A stretch of 64,000 bases of DNA from Pedobacter segetis (GCF_016623585.1 NZ_JAEHFY010000013.1:1-64000); one strand, 5' to 3'; numbered from the stretch's first letter, positions 23,785 to 37,600 are shown. Notes: a model not told the origin generated them from the letters alone. Program-made: numbers and translations.

Positions 23785-24020
23785 GCCCTGAGCGGAGGCG
23801 AAGGGAATGTCACCCAGAGCGGAGGCGAAGGGAATGTCACCCAGAGCGGAGGCGAAGGGAATGTCGCCCTGAGCGGAGGCGAAGGGAATGTCACCCAGAG
23901 CGAAGTCGAAGGGAATGTCGCCCAGAGCGGAGGCGAAGGGAATGTCACCCAGAGCGAAGTCGAAGGGAATGTCACCCAGAGCGAAGTCGAAGGGAATGTC
24001 ACCCTGAGCGAAGTCGAAGG
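23785..24020 (+). repeat. 27-bp tandem array, 9 units
   Basis: Nine head-to-tail units of the type (A/G)CCC(A/T)GAGCG-(GAGG or AAGT)-CGAAGG-GAATGTC, starting every 27 bp from 23785; the ninth, at 24001, is partial. Two sub-types (GGAGGCG and GAAGTCG) alternate irregularly, which suggests unequal exchange. It belongs to the dispersed 'CCCTGAGCGAAGTCGAAGG' family common in Bacteroidota genomes. Open frames across it (HPERSRRE-like peptides) arise because the unit is a multiple of three and stop-free; they are not genes. Confidence 0.93.
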
Positions 24021-26156: not shown

Positions 26157-26242
26157 ATCACTGATGCAAAGCGTCTCATTACTCACATCTTTTTACTCTT
26201 ATCACTGATGCAAAGCGTCTCATTACTCACATCTCTTTACTC
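26157..26242. repeat. 44-bp direct repeat in the groES-groEL gap
   Basis: Two copies starting at 26157 and 26201, each containing ATCACTGATGCAAAGCGTCT and CATTACTCACATCT. Within each copy GATGC-AAA-GCGTC can form a small hairpin. Short 'actcaatac' phrases flank the repeat on both sides. The array lengthens the gap between the two chaperonin genes and would be present twice in a groESL transcript. Confidence 0.9.
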
Positions 26243-26247
26243 AATAC

Positions 26248-26541
26248 TTACAAAATTGCGTAAATATCGCTTTCCCTCATGATCAAATACTCTTTCCCCT
26301 CGTAGGTAATTTCTGTGCCCGCATATTTGCTGTATAAAATTTTATCTCCTACTTTAACATCCATCGGGATTTGAGCGCCCGTGGAATCTGCAAATTTTCC
26401 GTTCCCTACAGCTACAATAACTCCTTGAGATGGTTTTTCCTTTGCGGTATCGGGGATGTAAATTCCCGAAGCGGTTTTCTCCTCTGCAGCAGCAGCTTCT
26501 ACCACTACTCTATCTGCGATAGGTTTAATGTTCATTGCCAT
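26248..26541 (-). CDS. groS: Co-chaperonin GroES (10 kDa)
   Basis: The heptameric lid of the GroEL cavity. It is 97 aa from the first ATG; the second in-frame ATG ([12 protein letters not shown]) gives the more usual N-terminus, 2 residues shorter. The mobile loop [18 protein letters not shown], the GKFADSTG turn and the closing [15 protein letters not shown] are typical of Bacteroidota GroES. It is the first gene of the groES-groEL unit. The upstream region has no clear CIRCE inverted repeat. Confidence 0.98.
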
Positions 26542-26595
26542 AATTAATCTGTTAATCTGTTATTTTTTAAAGTTTTTATTTTCTGATACCAACCG

Positions 26596-26612
26596 TACAT
26601 AGAATATGCCAA
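26596..26612 (-). promoter_or_regulatory. Possible sigma-54-like element ahead of groES
   Basis: The minus strand reads TTGGCATATTCTATGTA, which keeps TTGGCA and a G at the -12 side but lacks the full TTGC. It lies 55 bp before the groES ATG. No TTTG/TAnnTTTG pair with normal spacing was found in the same place. Weak support. Confidence 0.25.
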
Positions 26613-26918
26613 AGGAAAAACAGCTGAATTTTTTACAGTATAAGTCAGCTATGTAATTTATAAGATAAATTGTTAATGTCAGGTTGTCAGTAATGATGGG
26701 ATTTGGTTTTATGATCTAAACCATTTGTTTTTTTTAGGATCTATTTTGTTTACTTAGCTATTTTAAGAGGTATGATGATAAAGAATTATTTGGGTTTTAA
26801 ACAATGGGCCTGCGGGCGGATTTATTTTTTTTCATCCTGTGGGTTGCTATATTCTATACAAATCAATATGAAACGATGTTAAAAATTATGGTTTATTTAC
26901 AATATAAGAGGGCTGCCA

Positions 26919-26990
26919 CCCCCTGAGCGAAGTCGAAGGGGAGCGAAGTCGAAGGGAATGTCACCCTGAGCGAAGTCGAAGGGGGGAGCG
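26919..26990 (+). repeat. Dispersed GAGCGAAGTCGAAGG repeat cluster
   Basis: Three close copies of GAGCGAAGTCGAAGG (two of them in full CCCTGAGCG form), one followed by the GAATGTCACC linker seen in the 23785 array. It is the same repeat family at a second site 3 kb away. Confidence 0.9.
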
Positions 26991-27134: not shown

Positions 27135-29831
27135 TTAAACCTTTTTTCCCCTTGTTTTTTTAACCTTTGCAAACAGGGTATCTTTCTTGGTCATTTCTTC
27201 ATAAAGCTTAAAGAGGTAGGCCAAACGCTCGGCATCGTTTTCAAAAGGGGCCAAACGGTAAATTTGCTCTATGGCAAGATCTAGGGCTTTGTGCGCTTGC
27301 CGCAACCCGCTGGGCATGGTATCTGGGTTGTAAAGCCACGCCATGGTTTTCTCTGGGAATTTTGCCCGCTCATCCATTATATCATAAACATACTCGTTAA
27401 TGAGGGTTTTTTGCTTGGCGGTGGTTTCTGGGAAGGGGAAGGTGTTGTAACAGAGTTTAGCCGAATAACGGTAATCTGTTTTCAGTTTGCCGCCCACCGC
27501 ACTTACCCACACCATGTGCATTTTAGAATGGATGATACCGAATTCAAGAGCGGTTGCATTTGGTAAAATAAATGATGAATAATTGGCGATAACATCTTTA
27601 GTTAAAAAGCCTATGGGAATGTATTCTCTATTTTCTGATGAAACAACGGGTATCATTAAATAATCAGAATCTGGTTGTCTATCTTCCATAAACAAAAGAG
27701 GTTTATCCGCATATTTTCTAGTTTGAGTTTTCGGGCTTCTATTCCTAAATCTTTTGACATTCTCAACCCTTAATTGTATTTCTGGGTTGTTTAATATATC
27801 AGTCGGTTTTGCATCTTTAAGCCATAAACAATATCTTTTATAGCTATTAATTAGTTCTTGAGAGCCAATAAATTCTCTCACTAAGTAAGCCTGTTCTGGA
27901 TATTTGATTTTAAAGGCTTTTGCTTGTTCTTCAGTTGAGAATAGAAAATTTCCATCATCAATTGCAGCGTTGCCTTTCATCATTGGTCGAAATTTAGAAA
28001 GAGGTAATGGAAGTTCATCGATATATGAATCAGCAGCATCCAATAAATATCCATTTATGTTTTTTACCTCTTTGGTAATATTTGTAAAAAGATATTTAGG
28101 CTGGTTGCTTTTATTGCGCAATCCAACATTTATAACCGTTACGCCAGCATTGCCCCTTGCATTGTTTGTCCATTTAAAAGATTGATGTGCAAAAGAAATT
28201 TCAATATTTTTATTTAAAATCCTTGGCCAAGTAAGAGCAACCGCCAAACCTTGGCAAATAGAATTTGTAGCTACAAAAGCTAATTGGGCATCGTATCCTT
28301 CAATATATTTTGCTCCTTTATAAAACCAGGCAGTAACATAATCCAAACTTTTAAAATCCCTACCAAAAACCAATTGCATATCGTCTTTTTGGTTGCTGTC
28401 TTGGTTTCGGCTCCCCAAATATGGCGGGTTTCCCAAAATATAGATCTCATCGTTTGCGCCACGGGGGCAAACTTTTTCCCAGCTCATCCTGGTGGCATTT
28501 CCACATGCTATGTTGCCCGCTTGTTTTAAGGGCAAAATGGGTTTGCTTTGTCCAAGGCCTTCAAGACGATCGTCAAAAACCTTGTTCATCTGGTGCTCTG
28601 CCAGCCAAAGGGAAAGTATGGCCATTTCGTGGGCAAAATCTTTGATCTCTATGCCGTAAAATTGCGATAGCTGTATGCTGGTAAATTGCATAGGCAGGGT
28701 TAGGCCTTGTTGTATGCTTAGTTCTGCTATACGCTTGATCACCTCAATTTCTAGCAGACGGATCTCTTTGTAAGTGATGATCAAAAAGTTTCCGCTACCA
28801 CAGGCGGGATCAAAAAATTTGATACTTCCTAAACGGGCGATCAGCTTGTTTAGCCCGCTGATGCTGTTGTGCTGTTTTTCAAATTCTTTGTTTAGGGCGT
28901 TTAAAAAAAGCGGTTCTATCAGTTTTTTGATGTTTGGCACAGAGGTGTAGTGCATCCCTAGGTCGCTGCGTTCTTCGGGATCGGCAACGGCCTGTATCAT
29001 AGAGCCAAAAATATCCGGGTTGATCTCGCTCCAATCCAAATTGCCGCATTCTAATAAAATACGTCGCGATTTGGTGGTAAAGATAGGGGCTTTGATACTG
29101 TCTCTAAACAAGCCTCCGTTTACGTAAGGGAAGTTTTGCAAATGCTTGGGGAAGTCGCCGTTTTCGGTATCCAACTTGGTAAAAAGCTCGTTCAAAAACT
29201 CGTGTACATCGGCACCGTTGGCTTGTGTATGCTGGGCAAGGGTATCGGTAAATATGCCCACCTTATCAAAAATATCGGTATCCTCGGCAAAAAAACAAAA
29301 CAGCAAACGCGATAAAAACAGGTTTAAAAGATGGCTTTCTTTGGCGTAATCGGGGTTATCTTGCACCAAAATATCGTATAAACGGGCCAGCTGGTAACTT
29401 GCCTCACGATCGGCCTTGTTATCGTTCTTAGATCTATAAACCTCTGCACCGCTAAGTGGCAAAAAGAAATCGTAATAGCTGGGCAGCTCTAAAAGGGGTA
29501 TATCTATATTAACATTGGTTTTAAGGTCTTTGGCAACAATAAGCTGATGGTCCGTAACGATGATGAACCTTGGCTTTTGCTTCAATATCCGTTCTTCCTT
29601 GGCAAAAGCATCAACCCGCAGGTGCAGATCTGTTGCGGCATGGGCATAAAAGAGCTTGTTTTTGTAAAGTGTTTCCCCTTCTGTATCAGACATATTGAAA
29701 TCGCCTTTTTTTAAGCGCAAAACAGAGGTTTTAGAGCTTCCATAAGCCAAAAGCAGATCATAGATAAACTCTTCTTTGTTAAAATTGGCAACCAGTACGT
29801 TTAAATTGCTGATTATTTCTTTAGAGGTCAT
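27135..29831 (-). CDS. MmeI-like class I DNA adenine methyltransferase (type IIG/IIL-like)
   Basis: An 898-aa N6-adenine DNA methyltransferase with built-in target recognition. SAM motif I is FFDPACGSGNFLI (about 336-348), and the catalytic motif IV is NPPY (about 466-469, in GNPPYLGS). An N-terminal alpha/beta region with KPRFIIVTDHQ and a helical spacer (LFLSRLLFCFFAEDTDIF, LGMHYTSVPNI) precede it; a target-recognition region with LVREFIGSQELIN and FPFPE follows. This order matches the MmeI-like family. I do not see a clear PD-(D/E)xK nuclease motif at the N-terminus, so it may methylate without cutting, or use a diverged nuclease. It is monocistronic and about 2 kb from the helicase/GIY-YIG pair. 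Confidence 0.82.
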   Translation of the reverse strand: MTSKEIISNLNVLVANFNKEEFIYDLLLAYGSSKTSVLRLKKGDFNMSDTEGETLYKNKLFYAHAATDLHLRVDAFAKEERILKQKPRFIIVTDHQLIVAKDLKTNVNIDIPLLELPSYYDFFLPLSGAEVYRSKNDNKADREASYQLARLYDILVQDNPDYAKESHLLNLFLSRLLFCFFAEDTDIFDKVGIFTDTLAQHTQANGADVHEFLNELFTKLDTENGDFPKHLQNFPYVNGGLFRDSIKAPIFTTKSRRILLECGNLDWSEINPDIFGSMIQAVADPEERSDLGMHYTSVPNIKKLIEPLFLNALNKEFEKQHNSISGLNKLIARLGSIKFFDPACGSGNFLIITYKEIRLLEIEVIKRIAELSIQQGLTLPMQFTSIQLSQFYGIEIKDFAHEMAILSLWLAEHQMNKVFDDRLEGLGQSKPILPLKQAGNIACGNATRMSWEKVCPRGANDEIYILGNPPYLGSRNQDSNQKDDMQLVFGRDFKSLDYVTAWFYKGAKYIEGYDAQLAFVATNSICQGLAVALTWPRILNKNIEISFAHQSFKWTNNARGNAGVTVINVGLRNKSNQPKYLFTNITKEVKNINGYLLDAADSYIDELPLPLSKFRPMMKGNAAIDDGNFLFSTEEQAKAFKIKYPEQAYLVREFIGSQELINSYKRYCLWLKDAKPTDILNNPEIQLRVENVKRFRNRSPKTQTRKYADKPLLFMEDRQPDSDYLMIPVVSSENREYIPIGFLTKDVIANYSSFILPNATALEFGIIHSKMHMVWVSAVGGKLKTDYRYSAKLCYNTFPFPETTAKQKTLINEYVYDIMDERAKFPEKTMAWLYNPDTMPSGLRQAHKALDLAIEQIYRLAPFENDAERLAYLFKLYEEMTKKDTLFAKVKKTRGKKV

Positions 29832-30119
29832 GAATCCAAAAGTAGGAAATTGTTTGTTTAGTTGGTTGGGGGGTAATTAAATGAATTTTGGATGAGGGAG
29901 GGGGATGGATTTTGAAGGGATTATCATAGCCACTTTTTTATGCCGAGCGGAGCGGAAGCATAAAACCCAATGCAACCCTCTTTAAACCTGTTGCTTGCCC
30001 AAAATTTACAAGTTCCACATTTTTGGGCCAAAAGAATATTTTAATCTTTTAGACTATTTTTTTTGCCCTTTTAAAACAAATTTTATGTTAATTGCTTTAT
30101 TAAGCTAAGAGAAGTTAGA
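29832..30119. other. Divergent intergenic region, methyltransferase / pirin
   Basis: 288 bp with both gene starts facing outward. It includes a degenerate copy of the dispersed repeat (GCCGAGCGGAGCGGAAGC near 29942) and T-rich stretches before pirin. I see no convincing promoter pair. Confidence 0.5.
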
Positions 30120-30971
30120 ATGAGAAATATCAAAGCTATCCACAAAACAGTTTATTCGCCGGTTGATGATTTGGAAACTTTTAGGGCAATCCCCACGCAA
30201 AGCATCAATTATTTAGATCCTTTTCTTTTTTTGAACCACCATGGCCCACAATTTTATGTGAAAAACAACAATGGTTTGCCCTTTGGGCCGCATCCGCACC
30301 GTGGTTTTGAAACCTTAACCTATGTGCTTAAAGGCGATATCGCCCATCAAGATTCTACCGGGGGCGAAAGCGTGATCAAAGAGGGCGGCATACAATGGAT
30401 GACAGCGGGCAGCGGTTTGATACATTCTGAAGTTTCTTCACAAGAATTTATGCAAAATGGCGGCAAAGTAGAAGTTATACAGCTATGGCTAAATTTGGCC
30501 GCAAAAAACAAAATGGTAGAACCAAATTACAGGGGTTTAACTTTTGAGGATATTTGCCACTTTGATCTTGATGGTGGGAAAGTTAACGTAGATCTGATCT
30601 CTGGTAATTGGGACAAACATAAAGGCCCTATTGATTCTTTGAGCAATTTAACCATGGCAAGTATCAGGCTTAAAGCCGATGCAAGATTGAGCTTAGAAGT
30701 TGACGAAAAAAACGAGATCTTGTTTTACCTGGCCTATGGCGAATTAGTTGTTAACGCAACAGAGATACAAAAACACCAATTGGTACAGTTTGAAAACAAG
30801 GGTAGCGAGATTAGCATAAAAGCCAATAGCGATAGCTACCTGATCTTTGGTTACGGGAAACCTTTTAACGAACCAATGGTTGCCCAAGGGCCTTTTGTAA
30901 TGAACAGCCAAGAAGAAATTATGGCAGCCTATGCCGATTTTAGATCCGGAAAAATGGGTAAATGGCGATAG
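30120..30971 (+). CDS. Pirin family protein
   Basis: A bicupin metalloprotein of the pirin family, 283 aa. The iron ligands of the N-terminal cupin are all present: His58 and His60 in GPHPHRG, His102 and Glu104 in IHSEV. The C-terminal cupin (about 165-270) lacks a metal motif, as is usual. Bacterial pirins can have quercetinase activity or act as regulators; neither can be decided here. It is convergent with the DUF985 gene with only 3 bp between stops. Confidence 0.93.
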   Translation: MRNIKAIHKTVYSPVDDLETFRAIPTQSINYLDPFLFLNHHGPQFYVKNNNGLPFGPHPHRGFETLTYVLKGDIAHQDSTGGESVIKEGGIQWMTAGSGLIHSEVSSQEFMQNGGKVEVIQLWLNLAAKNKMVEPNYRGLTFEDICHFDLDGGKVNVDLISGNWDKHKGPIDSLSNLTMASIRLKADARLSLEVDEKNEILFYLAYGELVVNATEIQKHQLVQFENKGSEISIKANSDSYLIFGYGKPFNEPMVAQGPFVMNSQEEIMAAYADFRSGKMGKWR

Positions 30972-30974
30972 GGT

Positions 30975-31460
30975 TTAATTTAAGCACATTTCTTCTAATA
31001 TGTTCTTCAAACCGGGATAAAGGCTCATCAACTCTTTCTTTTTGGCCATCTCAAAATCTTCAAAATCAAACCCTGGGGAAACCGTACAGCTTACCAGTCC
31101 GTATCCTTTATAATTTTTCATTCTAGAGGCAAACCATGTATTTGCAGGGATAGTTGCCTGTAAAACTTCGCCGTTCTCTAAGTTATTGCCCAACAGCATT
31201 GTTTTCAGTGTATTTTCTTCTATATAGAGTATCTCTAAAGTTTCCCCAAAATGATGGAACCATTGTTCGTCTGATCTTATTTTGTGAAAATGTGATTTAT
31301 TTTGATCTGCTAACAAAAAAAATATAGCGGTAGAAACATTTCTTTTATTTCCATAGATGTTTACTATTTCTTCTTTTGCCCTGTAAGTTTCTTTGTAAAA
31401 CCCACCTTCGGGATGAGGCTTTAAGCCTAGTTTATTGATGAAGTATTTTGCGGTTTTCAT
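30975..31460 (-). CDS. DUF985 (Cupin_5) family protein
   Basis: A small single-domain cupin of 161 aa. Family hallmarks: LKPHPEGGFYKETYRA at the N-terminus, AIFFLLADQNKSHFHKIRSDEQWFHHFG in the middle and LVSCTVSPGFDFEDFEM near the end. Resolved members of DUF985 bind small molecules or metal in the barrel, but the reaction is not established. It is a single gene, convergent with pirin; the two cupin-type genes need not be functionally linked. Confidence 0.9.
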   Translation of the reverse strand: MKTAKYFINKLGLKPHPEGGFYKETYRAKEEIVNIYGNKRNVSTAIFFLLADQNKSHFHKIRSDEQWFHHFGETLEILYIEENTLKTMLLGNNLENGEVLQATIPANTWFASRMKNYKGYGLVSCTVSPGFDFEDFEMAKKKELMSLYPGLKNILEEMCLN

Positions 31461-31636
31461 TCTTTAAAATTAAGAATTTATGCTAGAGATTTAATAAAGC
31501 TTAATCTTAAATATCCAAGTGTGGTAAACAAAATATTTTTATTACTTTCAACCATAAAAAGAAGAGGTTCTGTTTATTTCATGGCCAATAAATATCGTAC
31601 AAGGTTGTATATTGGTTTTTTTTTGCTTTATGTTTG

Positions 31637-31752: not shown

Positions 31753-31855
31753 TATCCGGGTTTAGACGGATATTTTAGACGTAAAAAATCATAACTTATT
31801 GATTTACAAAGCTCCCCTCGGATATTTTTAAAATAAATTAGACGGATAATTATCC
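31753..31855 (+). promoter_or_regulatory. Cluster of CGGATA half-sites upstream of the helicase operon
   Basis: TATCCG (31753-31758) faces CGGATA (31767-31772) as an inverted pair. CGGATA recurs at 31819-31824 and at 31843-31848, the last inside the 12-bp perfect palindrome GGATAATTATCC (31844-31855), 26 bp before the ATG. TTAGACGGATA occurs as a direct repeat at 31762 and 31838. A repressor or autoregulatory operator is inferred. Confidence 0.5.
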
Positions 31856-31881: not shown

Positions 31882-34326
31882 ATGAATTACGGCCCACGCT
31901 TGCAAGAAATTATCAAACAATTAGGTTTAGCCAAAGAAAACATCTTATACCTTACCATAAACAATAGTTTTTTGCATGATATCCGCCTAGGCGAAAAAAA
32001 TGTAGAATACCGTGATCTAACCGATTTTTACCTACAAAGGTTTTTTAAAAAAGACGGTAAGGGCAATTATACCATACCAAAAAACATTACACATTTATTG
32101 TTACAGGGCGGCTACCTGTCCAACAGCCCACGTATGTTGGTGCAATTGAAAGGTATAGTGATCGTTGGTTCTTTTAAGCATCCTGCCGATATGGATACCG
32201 ATGGTTTCCCTTGTGATGAGGATCGCATCAATTTGTTATTGGCAAATATCGAATATGATTCTGTTACAGAAAACGGCGATACCGTAGTTATTACCAATCC
32301 TAAGCCTCGTCAAAAGCGTGAAAAAGTAATCATAAACCACCCAGAATATGTAAAGCCCATCAACTTGGTAAACGTTACCTACGCCCAAACGGGCCAAAGC
32401 AAAAAAACCGATGAATTGGGGATGCGGGAGATGCAGCAAAAAGCTTATGCAGCAAGATCGGCAAAATACCTTTTGTTGAAAGCGCCGCCTGCATCGGGCA
32501 AATCACGGGCATTAATGTTTATTGCTTTAGATAAATTGATCAACCAAGGAATTAAAAAAGTGATTGTTTCTGTGCCAGAACGTTCTATCGGTAGCTCATT
32601 TAGCCCAACAGAATTAAGCAAATACGGTTTCTTTGCAGATTGGGAACTTAGCCCAAGGTATAACCTTTGTACGCCCGGTGGCGAAAAAAACAAAGTAGAG
32701 GCCTTTGTTAAATTCTTGGAAAGCGAAGAGCGCATTTTGATCTGTACCCACGCCACTTTGCGTTTTGCCTTTGAAAGTTTAACACCAACAGATTTAAACA
32801 ATTGCCTGTTGGCGATAGATGAATTCCACCATGTATCTGCAGATGGCGAAAACCGATTAGGAGAAGTGATACGCAAGGTAATGGAAAAATCTACTGCCCA
32901 TTTGGTAGCCATGACGGGCTCTTATTTTAGAGGAGATAGCATACCTGTTTTATTGCCAGAAGACGAAGCCAAGTTTACCAACGTTACCTATAATTATTAC
33001 CAGCAATTAAATGGCTATGATCATTTGAAATCTTTAGGTATTGGTTACCATTTTTACCAAGGGCGCTATTACAAAAAGCAACCAGATAGAGAAATATCGG
33101 CCCTAGAAGAGATCTTGGACGAAGATTTAAAAACCATCATCCATATCCCCAGCGTAAACTCGGCAGAATCATCTAAAGAAAAGCTAGAAGAAGTTGGGCA
33201 TGTGATAGATTGTATTGGAGTGATGGAATACCAAGACCCTGAAACGGGGATCATGTATGTGAAGAGTAAACGCAGCGGGCGCATATTAAAAATTGCCGAT
33301 CTGGTTAATGATAACCTTAAAGAAAGAGACAAGGTGGTAGCTTATTTACGCGGCGTTAGCACTGCAGATGATCTTGATATGATCATTGCTTTGGGGATGG
33401 CCAAAGAAGGCTTCGATTGGCCATTTTGCCAACATGCGCTTACCATTGGTTACCGGGGCTCGCTTACAGAAATCATACAGATCATAGGCAGGGCAACCCG
33501 AGATAGCAATAATAAATCACACGCCCAGTTCACCAATTTAATTGCCCAGCCAGATGCCGTTGACGATGATGTGAAATTAGCCGTTAACAATATGCTAAAG
33601 GCCATTACCGCCTCGTTATTGATGGAACAAGTATTGGCCCCCAATTTTAAATTCAAACCGAAATTTGATGATGATAGGGATGATGCAGAGGTTGAAAATA
33701 AAGAAGATGGAAGGATCATAAAGATCAGAGGGTTTAAAATGCCAACATCGCAAAGGGCAAAAGACATCATAGAAAGCGACCTTAACGATTTAAAGGCCAA
33801 AATTCTGCAAGATGACGTGATGTTACGGGCAATGCCTGGCAATATTGATGCAGAAGTGATCAATACGGTAATTATTCCAAGGATCATTAGGGAGGTTTAT
33901 CCAGATTTGAATAAAGATGATTTGGAGGCGGTTAGGCAACATATTGTGGTAGATTCTGTAATGAAAAACAGTACCATAGAACAACAGGGCAACAAGCAGT
34001 TTTTAAGGATGGCAGGTAGTTTTGTTGATATTGATCAGATAGAGATTGATCTGATAGATAGGATCAATCCTTTTCAAAAAGCTTTCGAGATTTTATCAAA
34101 ATCTGTAACAGCATCGGTATTAAGGGCCATACAGGATACCATAAATGTGGCTAAATTAGAAATGACCGAAGCGGAAGCCATACTTTTGTGGCCAAAGATT
34201 AAAGAATGGGCGGCCGCACACGGAGAACCCAATCTACAATCACACGACCCAAAAGAGCAACGCTTGGCAGCAGCTTTGATATTTTTAAGAGAAGCTAGAA
34301 GAAAAAAAATGGTACAAAATGATTGA
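31882..34326 (+). CDS. SF2 DEAD/DEAH-box helicase of a two-gene helicase/GIY-YIG module
   Basis: A superfamily 2 nucleic-acid helicase or translocase, 814 aa. Motif I is APPASGKS (201-208), motif II is DEFH (313-316), motif III-like is MTGS (344-347), motif V is GMAKEGFDWP (505-514) and motif VI is QIIGRATRD (533-541). The roughly 185 residues before motif I and the 270 after motif VI match no domain I can name; the C-terminal part is helical and charged. Its last 8 bp overlap the start of the GIY-YIG gene, so the two proteins are made together. The layout resembles restriction or defence helicase-nuclease pairs, but I cannot match it to a named system. RecQ/UvrB-type housekeeping helicases are excluded by the domain layout. 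Confidence 0.85.
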   Translation: MNYGPRLQEIIKQLGLAKENILYLTINNSFLHDIRLGEKNVEYRDLTDFYLQRFFKKDGKGNYTIPKNITHLLLQGGYLSNSPRMLVQLKGIVIVGSFKHPADMDTDGFPCDEDRINLLLANIEYDSVTENGDTVVITNPKPRQKREKVIINHPEYVKPINLVNVTYAQTGQSKKTDELGMREMQQKAYAARSAKYLLLKAPPASGKSRALMFIALDKLINQGIKKVIVSVPERSIGSSFSPTELSKYGFFADWELSPRYNLCTPGGEKNKVEAFVKFLESEERILICTHATLRFAFESLTPTDLNNCLLAIDEFHHVSADGENRLGEVIRKVMEKSTAHLVAMTGSYFRGDSIPVLLPEDEAKFTNVTYNYYQQLNGYDHLKSLGIGYHFYQGRYYKKQPDREISALEEILDEDLKTIIHIPSVNSAESSKEKLEEVGHVIDCIGVMEYQDPETGIMYVKSKRSGRILKIADLVNDNLKERDKVVAYLRGVSTADDLDMIIALGMAKEGFDWPFCQHALTIGYRGSLTEIIQIIGRATRDSNNKSHAQFTNLIAQPDAVDDDVKLAVNNMLKAITASLLMEQVLAPNFKFKPKFDDDRDDAEVENKEDGRIIKIRGFKMPTSQRAKDIIESDLNDLKAKILQDDVMLRAMPGNIDAEVINTVIIPRIIREVYPDLNKDDLEAVRQHIVVDSVMKNSTIEQQGNKQFLRMAGSFVDIDQIEIDLIDRINPFQKAFEILSKSVTASVLRAIQDTINVAKLEMTEAEAILLWPKIKEWAAAHGEPNLQSHDPKEQRLAAALIFLREARRKKMVQND

Positions 34327-35518
34327 TTCTTTAGACGATATTTTTAACGATGACGAGTTTGGGTTATTGAGCCAGAAAGATAAACCAACCAACCTAAGAT
34401 CTGATGAGGATAGGATGATAGATGCTTTTGAAGAGATCAATAACTTTTATGAGCAAAATGGCAGGGAACCAGAAAAAGGAAGCATGTCTGAGTATAACCT
34501 TTTGGCCAAATTAAAAAGCTTTAAAACCGATGAGAAAAAGAAAAAAGCTTTAAAACCTTTTGATAAGTTCAATTTATTGGGAGAGGTAGAATTGGAAATG
34601 CCATCTTTAAGCCAAATTATTGAGGAAGACGATTTAGGTTTACTGGATAACGATGCCGACCTTTCCATTTATGCTTTTAAACATACGCCCAAACCAGATA
34701 AAAGGGCAGAGGCCGATTTTGTTGCACAAAGAAAAGCGATAACCGAAAGGGATTTTACAGAATACGAAGCGATGTTTTTTAAAGTACATCAAGAATTAAA
34801 AACAGGTTTACGTAAGCTGTTACCTTTTGAAAACATGGAGAAAAACCTGCAAATAGGTAATTTTTATCTGTTAGATGGCATATTGCTTTACCTAGAAGAT
34901 GGGGATTTAGAGAACAAGCCTCAAGAGTTAAAATCTGGGAATAGGCTAAGGCTTGATGGTAGAACAAAGATTATTTTTGAAAATGCCACAAAATCTAATA
35001 TGTTGTACCGTTCTTTAGGGAAAATGCTCTATAAAGGCGGTAAAATTATCACTCGCCCTAGTACTTTAGCAAATGAAGATCTAAAAAATAATAGCATAAT
35101 TGTTAAGGAGGATAATCTACAAACCGGGTGGATCTATGTCTTAAGATCAAAATCATCAAAGCCAGAAATTGCCAATTTGCAAAACCTCTATAAAATAGGC
35201 TTTTCTACCACAAAGGTTAGCGATAGGATAAATAATGCAGCCAATGAGGCCACTTATTTATACAGCGAAGTAGAAATTATAGCCTCCTACCTATGTTATG
35301 ATATAAATATCCATGCTTTTGAAAACCTTATCCACAGATTTTTTGCCAACAACTGCTTAAATATTGATATTTATGACAAAAACGGAAAAAGGCAAACACC
35401 AAGAGAATGGTTTATGGTGCCGCTACCGATAATAGATGAAGCAATCAATTTGTTGATAAACGGGAGCATCATCAATTATAGGTATGATGTTGGTTCAGAA
35501 TCTATCCTTCTAAAATAA
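34319..35518 (+). CDS. GIY-YIG nuclease (T5orf172/Mug113-type) partner of the helicase
   Basis: A 399-aa protein with an N-terminal charged helical region (1-160, beginning LDDIFNDDEFGLL), a middle region of about 100 residues that may contact DNA or the helicase, and a C-terminal GIY-YIG domain of the T5orf172/Mug113 type. Nuclease landmarks: GWIYVLRS (270-277), LYKIGFST (290-297), Arg303, and the metal-binding Glu335 with His339 in HAFENLIHRFF; REWF follows at 362-365. All key positions are intact, so an active nuclease is likely. The ATG lies inside the end of the helicase gene (8-bp overlap, different frame). It is convergent with glnS. Confidence 0.85.
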   Translation: MIDSLDDIFNDDEFGLLSQKDKPTNLRSDEDRMIDAFEEINNFYEQNGREPEKGSMSEYNLLAKLKSFKTDEKKKKALKPFDKFNLLGEVELEMPSLSQIIEEDDLGLLDNDADLSIYAFKHTPKPDKRAEADFVAQRKAITERDFTEYEAMFFKVHQELKTGLRKLLPFENMEKNLQIGNFYLLDGILLYLEDGDLENKPQELKSGNRLRLDGRTKIIFENATKSNMLYRSLGKMLYKGGKIITRPSTLANEDLKNNSIIVKEDNLQTGWIYVLRSKSSKPEIANLQNLYKIGFSTTKVSDRINNAANEATYLYSEVEIIASYLCYDINIHAFENLIHRFFANNCLNIDIYDKNGKRQTPREWFMVPLPIIDEAINLLINGSIINYRYDVGSESILLK

Positions 35519-35554: not shown

Positions 35555-37234
35555 CTATCCACTTACCTTTGCCCAAGTATCTTTTAAGGTAACCGTTCTG
35601 TTAAAAACCAAATTTTCTGATGTAGAATCTGCATCTAAACAAAAATAACCTTTACGTATAAATTGGTAACGCCTATCTGGGTTATCTGCCAGTTGTTGTT
35701 GTGCGTTTGCCAGATCAGCTTCTATATAGGCTTTCTTTAAAACCACCAAACTCTCTGGGTTGATGTATTCTTTAAAGTCGCCTTCTTCACGGTCTGGCTC
35801 TTCAGAGATGAACAATCTATCGTATAACCTCACTTCGGCAGTTTTTGCATGCCTAACGCTTACCCAGTGCATGGTACCCTTAACTTTTAAACCCGAAGTA
35901 TCCTCGCCAGATTTTGATTCTGGGAAATAAGTACAATGTATTTCGGTTACATTACCTTCCTCGTCTTTTACAAAATCGTTACACCTTACAATGTAGGCAT
36001 TCTTTAAACGGCTCATTAAGCCCGGGCCCAGGCGGAAGAATTTTTTTGGTGGCTCTTCCATAAAATCATCACGTTCTATCCAAAGCTCTCGGCCAAAAGG
36101 GATTTGTCTTTCGCCATCATGCCCTTCAACCTCTGGGTTGTTTTCGCCATGCAGCATTTCTTCTTGTCCTTCTGGATAGTTGGTGATCACCATTTTTATG
36201 GGGTCTAAAACTGCCATCCTTCGCCAAGAAGTTTTGTTTAGATCCTCACGGATAAAAAATTCTAGCAAGCTGTATTCTATTAAGTTTTCTCTTTTGGCAA
36301 TGCCGATGCGCTCGCAAAAATTACGGATAGAAGATGGTGTAAAACCCCTTCTTCTTAAACCGCTGATGGTTGGCATACGTGGATCATCCCAGCCGTTCAC
36401 AAAATTCTCGTTAACCAATTGCAACAATTTTCTTTTACTTGTTACGGTATAGTTTAGGTTTCTACGGGCAAATTCATACTGGTGCGATGGATAGATCTCC
36501 AATTTTTCTATCAACCAATTATAAAGATCACGGTGTGGGATAAATTCTAAGGTACAAACCGAATGGGTAACCTGTTCAATGGCATCACTTTGGCCGTGGG
36601 CAAAATCATACATAGGGTAAATGCTCCATTTATCTCCCGTACGGTGGTGTTTGGCATGTTTTATACGATATAAAATGGGATCACGCATTAGCATATTTAC
36701 GTGTGCCATATCAATTTTTGCCCTTAGGGTTTTGCTGCCATCAGGGAAATCCCCGTTTTTCATCTGGGCAAAAAGTGAGAGGTTTTCTTCTACCGTACGG
36801 TTTCTGAAAGGAGAATCTTTTCCCACTTCGGTTGGTGTACCTTTTAAGGTTGCCATTTCCTCTGCACTAAGATCATCTACATAGGCTAAACCCTTTTCTA
36901 TCAGTTTTATGGCAAAACCATACAGGGTATCAAAATAATCGGAGGCGTAAAGTTCGTTTTCCCACTTGAAGCCTAGCCAAGCAATGTCTTTTTTGATCGC
37001 ATCAACATATATGGTCTCTTCCGTAACGGGATTGGTATCATCAAAACGAAGATTGGTATAACCTTTGAATTTTTTTGTTAGCCCAAAATTTAAGCAGATA
37101 GAACTTGCATGCCCAATGTGCAAAAAACCATTTGGCTCTGGTGGGAAACGGGTTATGATCTTATCGTATTTGCCAGAACTAAGATCGTTCTCTACAATCT
37201 CTTCAATAAAGTTTAATGATTTTTCTTCAGACAT
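35555..37234 (-). CDS. glnS: Glutaminyl-tRNA synthetase
   Basis: Charges tRNA-Gln with glutamine in the cytoplasm. It is a class I synthetase with the HIGH motif in PPEPNGFLHIGHA and the KMSKS counterpart in TVTSKRKLL. The Rossmann fold and the C-terminal double beta-barrel anticodon-binding region (ESLVVLKKAYIEAD and following) give 559 aa, typical of GlnRS. The text DDTNPVTEETIYVDAI separates it from GluRS. Its presence suggests direct glutaminylation. It is a single gene with its own promoter at 37265-37299. Confidence 0.98.
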   Translation of the reverse strand: MSEEKSLNFIEEIVENDLSSGKYDKIITRFPPEPNGFLHIGHASSICLNFGLTKKFKGYTNLRFDDTNPVTEETIYVDAIKKDIAWLGFKWENELYASDYFDTLYGFAIKLIEKGLAYVDDLSAEEMATLKGTPTEVGKDSPFRNRTVEENLSLFAQMKNGDFPDGSKTLRAKIDMAHVNMLMRDPILYRIKHAKHHRTGDKWSIYPMYDFAHGQSDAIEQVTHSVCTLEFIPHRDLYNWLIEKLEIYPSHQYEFARRNLNYTVTSKRKLLQLVNENFVNGWDDPRMPTISGLRRRGFTPSSIRNFCERIGIAKRENLIEYSLLEFFIREDLNKTSWRRMAVLDPIKMVITNYPEGQEEMLHGENNPEVEGHDGERQIPFGRELWIERDDFMEEPPKKFFRLGPGLMSRLKNAYIVRCNDFVKDEEGNVTEIHCTYFPESKSGEDTSGLKVKGTMHWVSVRHAKTAEVRLYDRLFISEEPDREEGDFKEYINPESLVVLKKAYIEADLANAQQQLADNPDRRYQFIRKGYFCLDADSTSENLVFNRTVTLKDTWAKVSG

Positions 37235-37600
37235 GCTTAATAATTACAAGGATATTTCAAGGCACAAAAGTAAGAATTTTTAAATGAGGCTATCCCAAAA
37301 ATTGGTGTCATTCCGAATTTATTTCGGAAACTTATCAAAATGAGTTCTCACATAGTTTGCCAACTTGAAAATGAGATATTGAATACGCCAGTTGGCGGGC
37401 AGCATGACAAATCTTTTAATTTTGAGGTGGCTTTCTATTTAAAAGTAATTTGATGTAAATTGAAATTTTTTAAATGATGTGGTTTAAGCGTTAAGGATAG
37501 AAACGGATACCGGCCTGTGAATAAGGCCTTGTGGCGTATGAGTGGATAGCCTGTTAAAACGCCCAAAAAATTATCATCTATTATGAAGACCCACGCCTAT
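37235..37600. other. 366-bp gene-free stretch between ald and glnS
   Basis: It contains the glnS promoter, a TTCCGAA-TTTAT-TTCGGAA-type hairpin around 37313-37331, a GCCAGTTGGC palindrome with GCATGAC text near 37390-37408 (both typical of dispersed intergenic repeats in this group), and a copy of GTTAAAACGCCCAAAA at 37553-37568. There is no ORF worth calling. Confidence 0.6.
37265..37299 (-). promoter_or_regulatory. Bacteroidota-type promoter of glnS
   Basis: Minus strand: TTTG (37296-37299), 23-nt spacer, then TACTTTTG (37265-37272), an exact TAnnTTTG. The glnS ATG is 31 bp downstream. Confidence 0.65.

What the first reader, a model, noticed from the sequence alone, without database searches (positions are those of the whole stretch)
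31882..35518. Coupled SF2 helicase and GIY-YIG nuclease: a possible undescribed nucleic-acid-targeting system
Two genes overlap by 8 bp. The first has intact helicase motifs I, II, III, V and VI between two large regions I cannot name; the second has an intact T5orf172-type GIY-YIG nuclease (GWIYVLRS, LYKIGFST, Arg303, Glu335) behind a long unassigned N-terminus. A helicase co-translated with a nuclease is a classic defence or repair layout, but the pair does not match Hachiman, Zorya, type I/III restriction, DISARM or BREX as I know them. I recall similar pairs in other bacteria annotated only as 'helicase family' and 'GIY-YIG family', so the module may be widespread but unexplained.
Basis: partly seen in the sequence, partly recalled or inferred. 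Interest (0 to 1): 0.72.

Follow-up and report, generated by a model that had tools for sequence, protein, structure and literature searches.

The report
DnmABC-type restriction system with ASCH domain
The two genes are the helicase and nuclease of a known, poorly understood bacterial restriction-modification system (DnmA-YeeB-YeeC), whose DNA-methylating third gene lies 2 kb away because an inversion split the operon; what is unusual is a phage-type ASCH domain fused to the helicase, which might help it sense foreign nucleic acid.

Summary
In detail: an 814-aa SF2 helicase (31882-34326) overlaps a 399-aa T5orf172 GIY-YIG protein (34319-35518) by 8 bp, and the key motifs are intact. The pair is not undescribed. 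It is YeeB-YeeC, partners of the MmeI-like adenine methyltransferase DnmA/YeeA, described in Bacillus subtilis as a Type I-like RM system or relic. In 126 homologous loci the GIY-YIG gene follows the helicase in 123 of 124 testable cases, and the methyltransferase lies upstream on the same strand in 86 of 88. The window is an exception for a traceable reason: a sister genome has the empty site groES-cupin-pirin-glnS, and one inversion of cupin-pirin-MTase yields the window's order. The new part is the helicase N-terminus (residues 18-130): an ASCH-fold domain related to a free-standing phage family (PHROG 625). The same domain sits on the helicase in Porphyromonas somerae and on the C-terminus of the GIY-YIG subunit in two other genomes, one without a nearby methyltransferase. 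Most likely this is a Type I-like restriction system with an accessory sensor or targeting domain. Verdict: new variant of a known kind.

The parts
27135..29831 (-). DnmA/YeeA-type MmeI-like adenine DNA methyltransferase (898 aa; motif I FDPACGSG at residue 340, NPPY at 468; TRD 600-802); no alignable MmeI nuclease region
   Evidence: Pfam MmeI_Mtase 6e-101, MmeI_TRD 8e-71; MmeI 5hr4 aligned only from MmeI residue 106; distances congruent with the helicase, Spearman 0.91
31882..34326 (+). YeeB-type SF2 helicase (814 aa)
31933..32271 (+). N-terminal ASCH-like (PUA superfamily) domain of the helicase, residues 18-130
   Evidence: PHROG 625 6.1e-9; AF2 pLDDT mostly above 90 over residues 1-90 and 110-130; best Foldseek and VIA matches are ASCH structures; present in L009 at 46% identity
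32362..34311 (+). Helicase core and C-terminal region shared by all YeeB homologues (residues 161-810)
   Evidence: (most homologues align only to 161-810)
34319..35518 (+). YeeC-type GIY-YIG protein (399 aa)
35105..35470 (+). T5orf172 GIY-YIG nuclease domain (residues 263-384) with R303, E335
   Evidence: invariant residues; Slx1 6sei match Z 5.4
34817..35056 (+). Predicted SH3/KOW-like beta-barrel before the nuclease (residues 167-246)
   Evidence: AF2 model, weak matches to EF-P/eIF5A domain I
34319..34326 (+). 8-bp overlap of the two genes
   Evidence: same overlap in 49 of 123 homologous pairs
30049..31491 (.). Resident pirin-cupin block, inverted relative to sister genome G017; lies between the methyltransferase and the helicase
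   Evidence: blastn to L194: window 30049-31491 = G017:C11 123925-122485, flanks collinear
31762..31848 (+). Two exact TTAGACGGATA repeats (31762, 31838) in the 120 bp before the helicase start; possible operator
   Evidence: 4 matches with up to 1 mismatch in the window, 0.76 expected

Best explanation
This is a DnmA-YeeB-YeeC type restriction-modification system. DnmA recognises a short asymmetric site and N6-methylates adenine on host DNA. When it meets an unmodified site it recruits or licenses the YeeB helicase with its co-translated partner YeeC. YeeB translocates DNA with ATP and the YeeC GIY-YIG domain cuts, as HsdM/S and HsdR do in Type I systems. Shown here: composition, intact active-site residues, strict co-occurrence, congruent methyltransferase and helicase distances, loss of the methyltransferase's own nuclease region, and an inversion that split the operon. 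Inferred: methylation, translocation, cleavage and phage restriction. In this copy the helicase also carries an N-terminal ASCH-fold domain of a phage-related family. It is inferred to be an accessory nucleic-acid sensor or targeting module.
For: Families. GIY-YIG next to the helicase in 123/124 loci and methyltransferase upstream in 86/88. The same 9 of 395 Bacteroidota genomes, and only those, have both helicase and YeeC. Mantel rho 0.913, 0 of 999 permutations. MmeI residues 1-105, which contain its nuclease motif, are not matched. Patchy distribution: full-length in 4 of 60 relatives; YeeB on 263 plasmid records, 118 of them conjugative, and on 41 viral contigs. Empty site and inversion. 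Published cluster with m6A activity in B. subtilis (PMC7261158) and phage phenotypes in Vibrio crassostreae (Piel et al., as cited in PMC9973331). ASCH.
Against: Deleting yeeB or yeeC in B. subtilis changed neither phage plaquing nor growth, and deleting dnmA did not change plasmid transformation; the authors call it a relic (PMC9973331, PMC7261158). No cleavage has been shown for any member in the papers I could read. In the window the operon is split, so expression may be unbalanced, although all three ORFs are open.
Confidence: 0.78

Rival explanations
1. Decaying relic: only the methyltransferase (or nothing) is functional; helicase and nuclease persist without restriction, as proposed for B. 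subtilis, and the inversion has broken expression.
For: PMC9973331 finds no defence by the B. subtilis cluster; the operon in the window is split by an inversion.
Against: All three ORFs are full length; catalytic motifs and the 8-bp overlap are preserved; V. crassostreae homologues affect phage sensitivity (cited in PMC9973331).
Confidence: 0.17
2. Modification-sensing hybrid: the ASCH domain recognises modified bases (or phage RNA) and redirects the helicase-nuclease to modified phages, a Type IV-like mode alongside or instead of methyltransferase-guided restriction.
For: ASCH fold with weaker matches to m6A-binding YTH domains; the domain sits on either of the two effector subunits (L009, G203, G108); in G108 no DnmA lies within about 29 kb upstream or 20 kb downstream; ASCH fused to HsdS and EVE fused to GIY-YIG nucleases are interpreted this way in PMC7641849.
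Against: A fold shows no ligand; the window, L009 and G203 retain DnmA; ASCH domains may also bind RNA or be enzymes (YqfB amidohydrolases, PMC9599836).
Confidence: 0.2
3. A repair or recombination helicase-nuclease pair of core metabolism.
For: SF2 helicase plus GIY-YIG architecture alone; sits among housekeeping genes (groESL, glnS, ald).
Against: Present in 4 of 60 relatives and 9 of 395 phylum genomes; on plasmids and phages; sister genome has an empty site; bound to a DNA methyltransferase.
Confidence: 0.02

Closest known systems
DnmA-YeeB-YeeC (B. subtilis yeeA/dnmA-yeeB-yeeC; V. crassostreae homologues)
   Same: Same three components and families: MmeI-like methyltransferase without nuclease, SF2 helicase, T5orf172 GIY-YIG protein; same helicase-to-nuclease order
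   Different: Methyltransferase inverted and separated by pirin and cupin; helicase has an extra N-terminal ASCH domain; recognition site unknown
MmeI (Type IIL/IIG)
   Same: Methyltransferase fold, TRD and C-terminal domain, E 4.9e-181 to 5hr4; PADLOC calls it REase_MTase_IIG
   Different: No alignable N-terminal nuclease region; nuclease and motor are separate proteins
Type I RM (HsdRMS)
   Same: Separate methyltransferase/specificity and SF2 motor, presumed translocation-coupled cleavage
   Different: GIY-YIG nuclease on its own subunit instead of PD-(D/E)XK in HsdR; methyltransferase and specificity in one chain; no HsdS
Phage PHROG 625 / ASCH domain proteins (e.g. ZmASCH 5gus, 3iuw)
   Same: Fold and GEKxxEYR signature of the helicase N-terminus
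   Different: Free-standing small proteins; here fused to a restriction helicase
EVE/ASCH modification-dependent restriction enzymes (PMC7641849)
   Same: PUA-superfamily domain joined to a restriction effector
   Different: Those are EVE fusions to PD-(D/E)XK, HNH, PLD or GIY-YIG nucleases; ASCH fusion to YeeB or YeeC did not appear in my text search of that paper

Membership tests
DnmA-YeeB-YeeC system | MmeI-like DNA methyltransferase nearby, lacking its own nuclease | tested here: met
   P0003 at 27135-29831; MmeI residues 1-105 unmatched
DnmA-YeeB-YeeC system | SF2 helicase immediately upstream of a T5orf172 GIY-YIG gene | tested here: met
DnmA-YeeB-YeeC system | Methyltransferase upstream, same strand (the usual operon order; a layout feature rather than a compositional one) | tested here: not met
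   Opposite strand, 2 kb away; explained by an inversion seen against sister genome G017
DnmA-YeeB-YeeC system | Methyltransferase co-evolves with the helicase (cognate) | tested here: met
   Mantel rho 0.913 over 89 loci; window's nearest methyltransferases lie in the same group as its nearest helicases
DnmA-YeeB-YeeC system | Direct sequence match to B. subtilis YeeB/YeeC themselves | tested here: inconclusive
   Control B. subtilis genome rings for both PF20473 and PF10544; its protein sequences were not aligned directly
DnmA-YeeB-YeeC system | m6A at an asymmetric site | not testable with these tools
   NPPY motif present; no methylome
Type I RM | HsdS subunit and PD-(D/E)XK in HsdR | tested here: not met
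   No HsdR, HsdS or PD-(D/E)XK match in Pfam/PADLOC scans of the three proteins
MmeI / Type IIL | N-terminal PD-ExK nuclease in the same chain | tested here: not met
   D-x9-ExK pattern absent from the window protein
Hachiman, Zorya, DISARM, BREX | Signature proteins | tested here: not met
   PADLOC: no HamA/B or Zor match; DrmMI/PglX matches only through the shared methyltransferase fold
ASCH/PUA superfamily (helicase N-terminus) | ASCH fold and sequence signature | tested here: met
   Foldseek prob 0.99 to 5gus/3iuw; VIA Z 6.7, rmsd 3.5, 78 aligned to 3iuw_B; relatives reach Pfam ASCH at E 0.004-0.08, below cut-off; window itself has no Pfam hit

The most novel reading that the evidence does not exclude
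Repeated capture of a phage-type ASCH domain by either effector subunit turns the DnmABC system into a dual-mode defence, restricting unmethylated DNA through DnmA and modified phage DNA or RNA through ASCH. In MTase-free copies such as G108 the ASCH-bearing pair would work as a stand-alone modification-dependent (Type IV-like) system.
Probability: 0.18. Interest if true: 0.68.

Novelty: new variant of a known kind. Interest (0 to 1): 0.4.

Why it matters
The DnmABC family is widespread in bacteria and also found in a methanogen MAG, on 263 plasmid records and on viral contigs, yet its helicase and nuclease have no PADLOC or NCBIfam model, and PADLOC labels the methyltransferase as Type IIG. 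A recurrent ASCH fusion gives a domain-level clue to how some copies might sense targets, and it makes the 'relic or active RM' question testable in a copy with all catalytic residues intact.

Tried and rejected
An undescribed system: rejected, see PMC7261158 and PMC9973331. Core repair genes: rejected by patchy distribution and the empty site. Pirin and cupin as system components: rejected; they are resident genes adjacent in sister G017 without the system. Gap genes between methyltransferase and helicase in relatives are varied RM-associated cargo (RhuM-like, AlbA_2/Schlafen-like, Fic, BRO-like; names from my reading of the sequences), not a fixed fourth component. ASCH domain as an assembly or start-codon artefact: rejected, L009 keeps it at 46% identity. 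Viral scan with the window's N-terminus alone found nothing and alignment A3 was too divergent to scan; A4 worked. PDB sequence search of helicase and YeeC found nothing. Foldseek with the whole YeeC model gave no significant match. Morgan 2009 is not held, so it is cited only through later papers. One weak ASCH match, in L093, was a chance hit inside a TonB-type receptor. Promoter and terminator scans were at shuffle level.

Full report
Observation. The two ORFs exist as stated: 31882-34326 (+, 814 aa) and 34319-35518 (+, 399 aa), overlapping by 8 bp. Pfam finds DEAD, ResIII and Helicase_C in the first and T5orf172/MUG113 in the second. Helicase motifs are 97% or more conserved across 89 homologues, and the GIY-YIG residues G270, Y273, K292, G294, R303, E335 and H339 are invariant in 46 homologues.

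The missed partner. On the minus strand at 27135-29831 lies an 898-aa MmeI-like methyltransferase with complete MmeI_Mtase, TRD, spacer, C- and N-domain matches and an NPPY motif. Against MmeI (5hr4) it aligns only from MmeI residue 106, so the region that holds MmeI's PD-ExK nuclease (position from my own knowledge) is not conserved. It is the only full MmeI-type gene in the genome, and the GIY-YIG gene is the only T5orf172 gene. This composition is that of DnmA-YeeB-YeeC in B. subtilis. There DnmA makes m6A at GACGAG, and YeeB (SF2 helicase) and YeeC (T5orf172) are conserved neighbours (PMC7261158, PMC9973331). Those papers report no phage or plasmid restriction in B. subtilis, but cite increased phage sensitivity of V. 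crassostreae deletion mutants (Piel et al.).

Co-occurrence. Scans of genome and viral collections gave 126 helicase loci. The GIY-YIG gene follows on the same strand in 123 of 124 loci with enough sequence, 49 with the same 8-bp overlap. The methyltransferase lies upstream on the same strand in 86 of 88; the exceptions are this window and L139, which has a methyltransferase fragment. In an independent sample of 395 Bacteroidota genomes, the same nine genomes hold helicase and YeeC and no genome holds one alone at the thresholds used. Methyltransferase and helicase distances correlate at Spearman 0.913, 0 of 999 permutations reaching it. The system is patchy (4 of 60 relatives full length) and mobile (263 plasmid records, 118 conjugative). 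These loci were found with the helicase as query and lean towards its closer relatives.

Why the operon is split here. Sister genome G017 has groES(-) - cupin(+) - pirin(-) - glnS(-) with nothing between. DNA alignment shows window 26218-26691 and 35559-37250 collinear with G017, and 30049-31491 inverted. Insertion of a canonical MTase>helicase>YeeC operon between pirin and glnS, followed by one inversion of [cupin-pirin-MTase], gives exactly the window's order. The order of these two events is inferred. REP-like repeats at 26921-26984 lie close to one breakpoint; whether they took part is unknown.

The helicase N-terminus. Most homologues align only to residues 161-810. Residues 1-160 are shared with the Porphyromonas somerae helicase (L009, 46% identity), so they are real coding sequence. 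Pfam finds nothing in them, but PHROG 625, a phage family of unknown function, matches at 6.1e-9, and free-standing phage relatives are common in IMG/VR. AlphaFold2 with 35 sequences gives pLDDT mostly above 90 for residues 1-90 and 110-130. Foldseek's best hits are ASCH proteins (5gus, 3iuw, probability 0.99 but E only 0.01). VIA gives 3iuw_B Z 6.7 (rmsd 3.5, 78 aligned), other ASCH proteins Z about 5-6.5, then YTH domains. Z of this size alone would be weak; the agreement with sequence matches (ASCH E 0.004-0.08 in relatives) makes the assignment sound.

Domain shuffling. A search for this domain led to other copies of the same system. In G203 and G108 the ASCH domain sits at the C-terminus of YeeC instead. 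Of nine Bacteroidota genomes with the system in the 395-genome sample, three carry ASCH on one subunit or the other; the search profile included the window and G203, so only G108 is an independent find. G203 keeps DnmA (L094 14687-17431), and its YeeC is split into two ORFs. G108 has no DnmA in the roughly 29 kb upstream or 20 kb downstream that I read, and lies in a defence island with SIR2-HerA and Septu. A DnmA elsewhere in G108 was not excluded. ASCH fused to the specificity subunit of a Type I system, and EVE fused to GIY-YIG nucleases, are described and read as modified-base recognition in PMC7641849.

Mechanism. Most likely Type I-like restriction: DnmA as modifier and specificity factor, YeeB as ATP-driven motor, YeeC as nuclease. 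The ASCH domain is probably an accessory sensor or targeting element, ligand unknown. Modification sensing is attractive but not shown. The relic hypothesis remains open. The modification-sensing rival overlaps with the best explanation, so the confidences given are not exclusive.

Novelty. The system is known; the ASCH-bearing variant, its movement between subunits and the inverted layout were not found in the papers read here. The library holds only open-licence papers, so prior description elsewhere cannot be excluded.

Noticed in passing
31762-31772 and 31838-31848: Two exact TTAGACGGATA repeats (plus a partial TTTTAGACGT at 31773) just before the helicase start; possible operator or autoregulation site.
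   Followed up: partly
23898-24020 and 26921-26984: Clusters of REP-like CCCTGAGCGAAGTCGAAGGG repeats, 15 exact copies in the genome, one cluster close to the inversion breakpoint beside the methyltransferase 3' end.
   Followed up: partly
L212 4635-15048 (genome G108): Defence island: SIR2-HerA, AlbA_2-like protein, helicase plus YeeC-ASCH, Septu PtuA/PtuB, with a tyrosine-recombinase-like gene nearby; no DnmA within the read region.
   Followed up: partly
L094 9286-10780 (genome G203): YeeC there is split into two ORFs (89 and 407 aa) separated by 1 nt; may be a frameshift or a split gene.
   Followed up: no
L101 659-1860: Prophage-like ASCH gene beside a PAPS-reductase-like and a ParB-like gene; a possible context clue for PHROG 625 function.
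   Followed up: no
L013, L015, L019, L024, L026, L027, L080 and others, between MTase and helicase: Recurrent RhuM-like and AlbA_2/Schlafen-like genes embedded between DnmA and YeeB homologues, like cargo in Type I RM loci.
   Followed up: partly
L049 4296-7016: Methyltransferase placed downstream of YeeC instead of upstream, another rearranged layout.
   Followed up: no
34817-35056 (YeeC residues 167-246): Predicted SH3/KOW-like barrel before the nuclease in YeeC homologues; possible nucleic-acid or partner-binding domain with only weak structural matches.
   Followed up: partly
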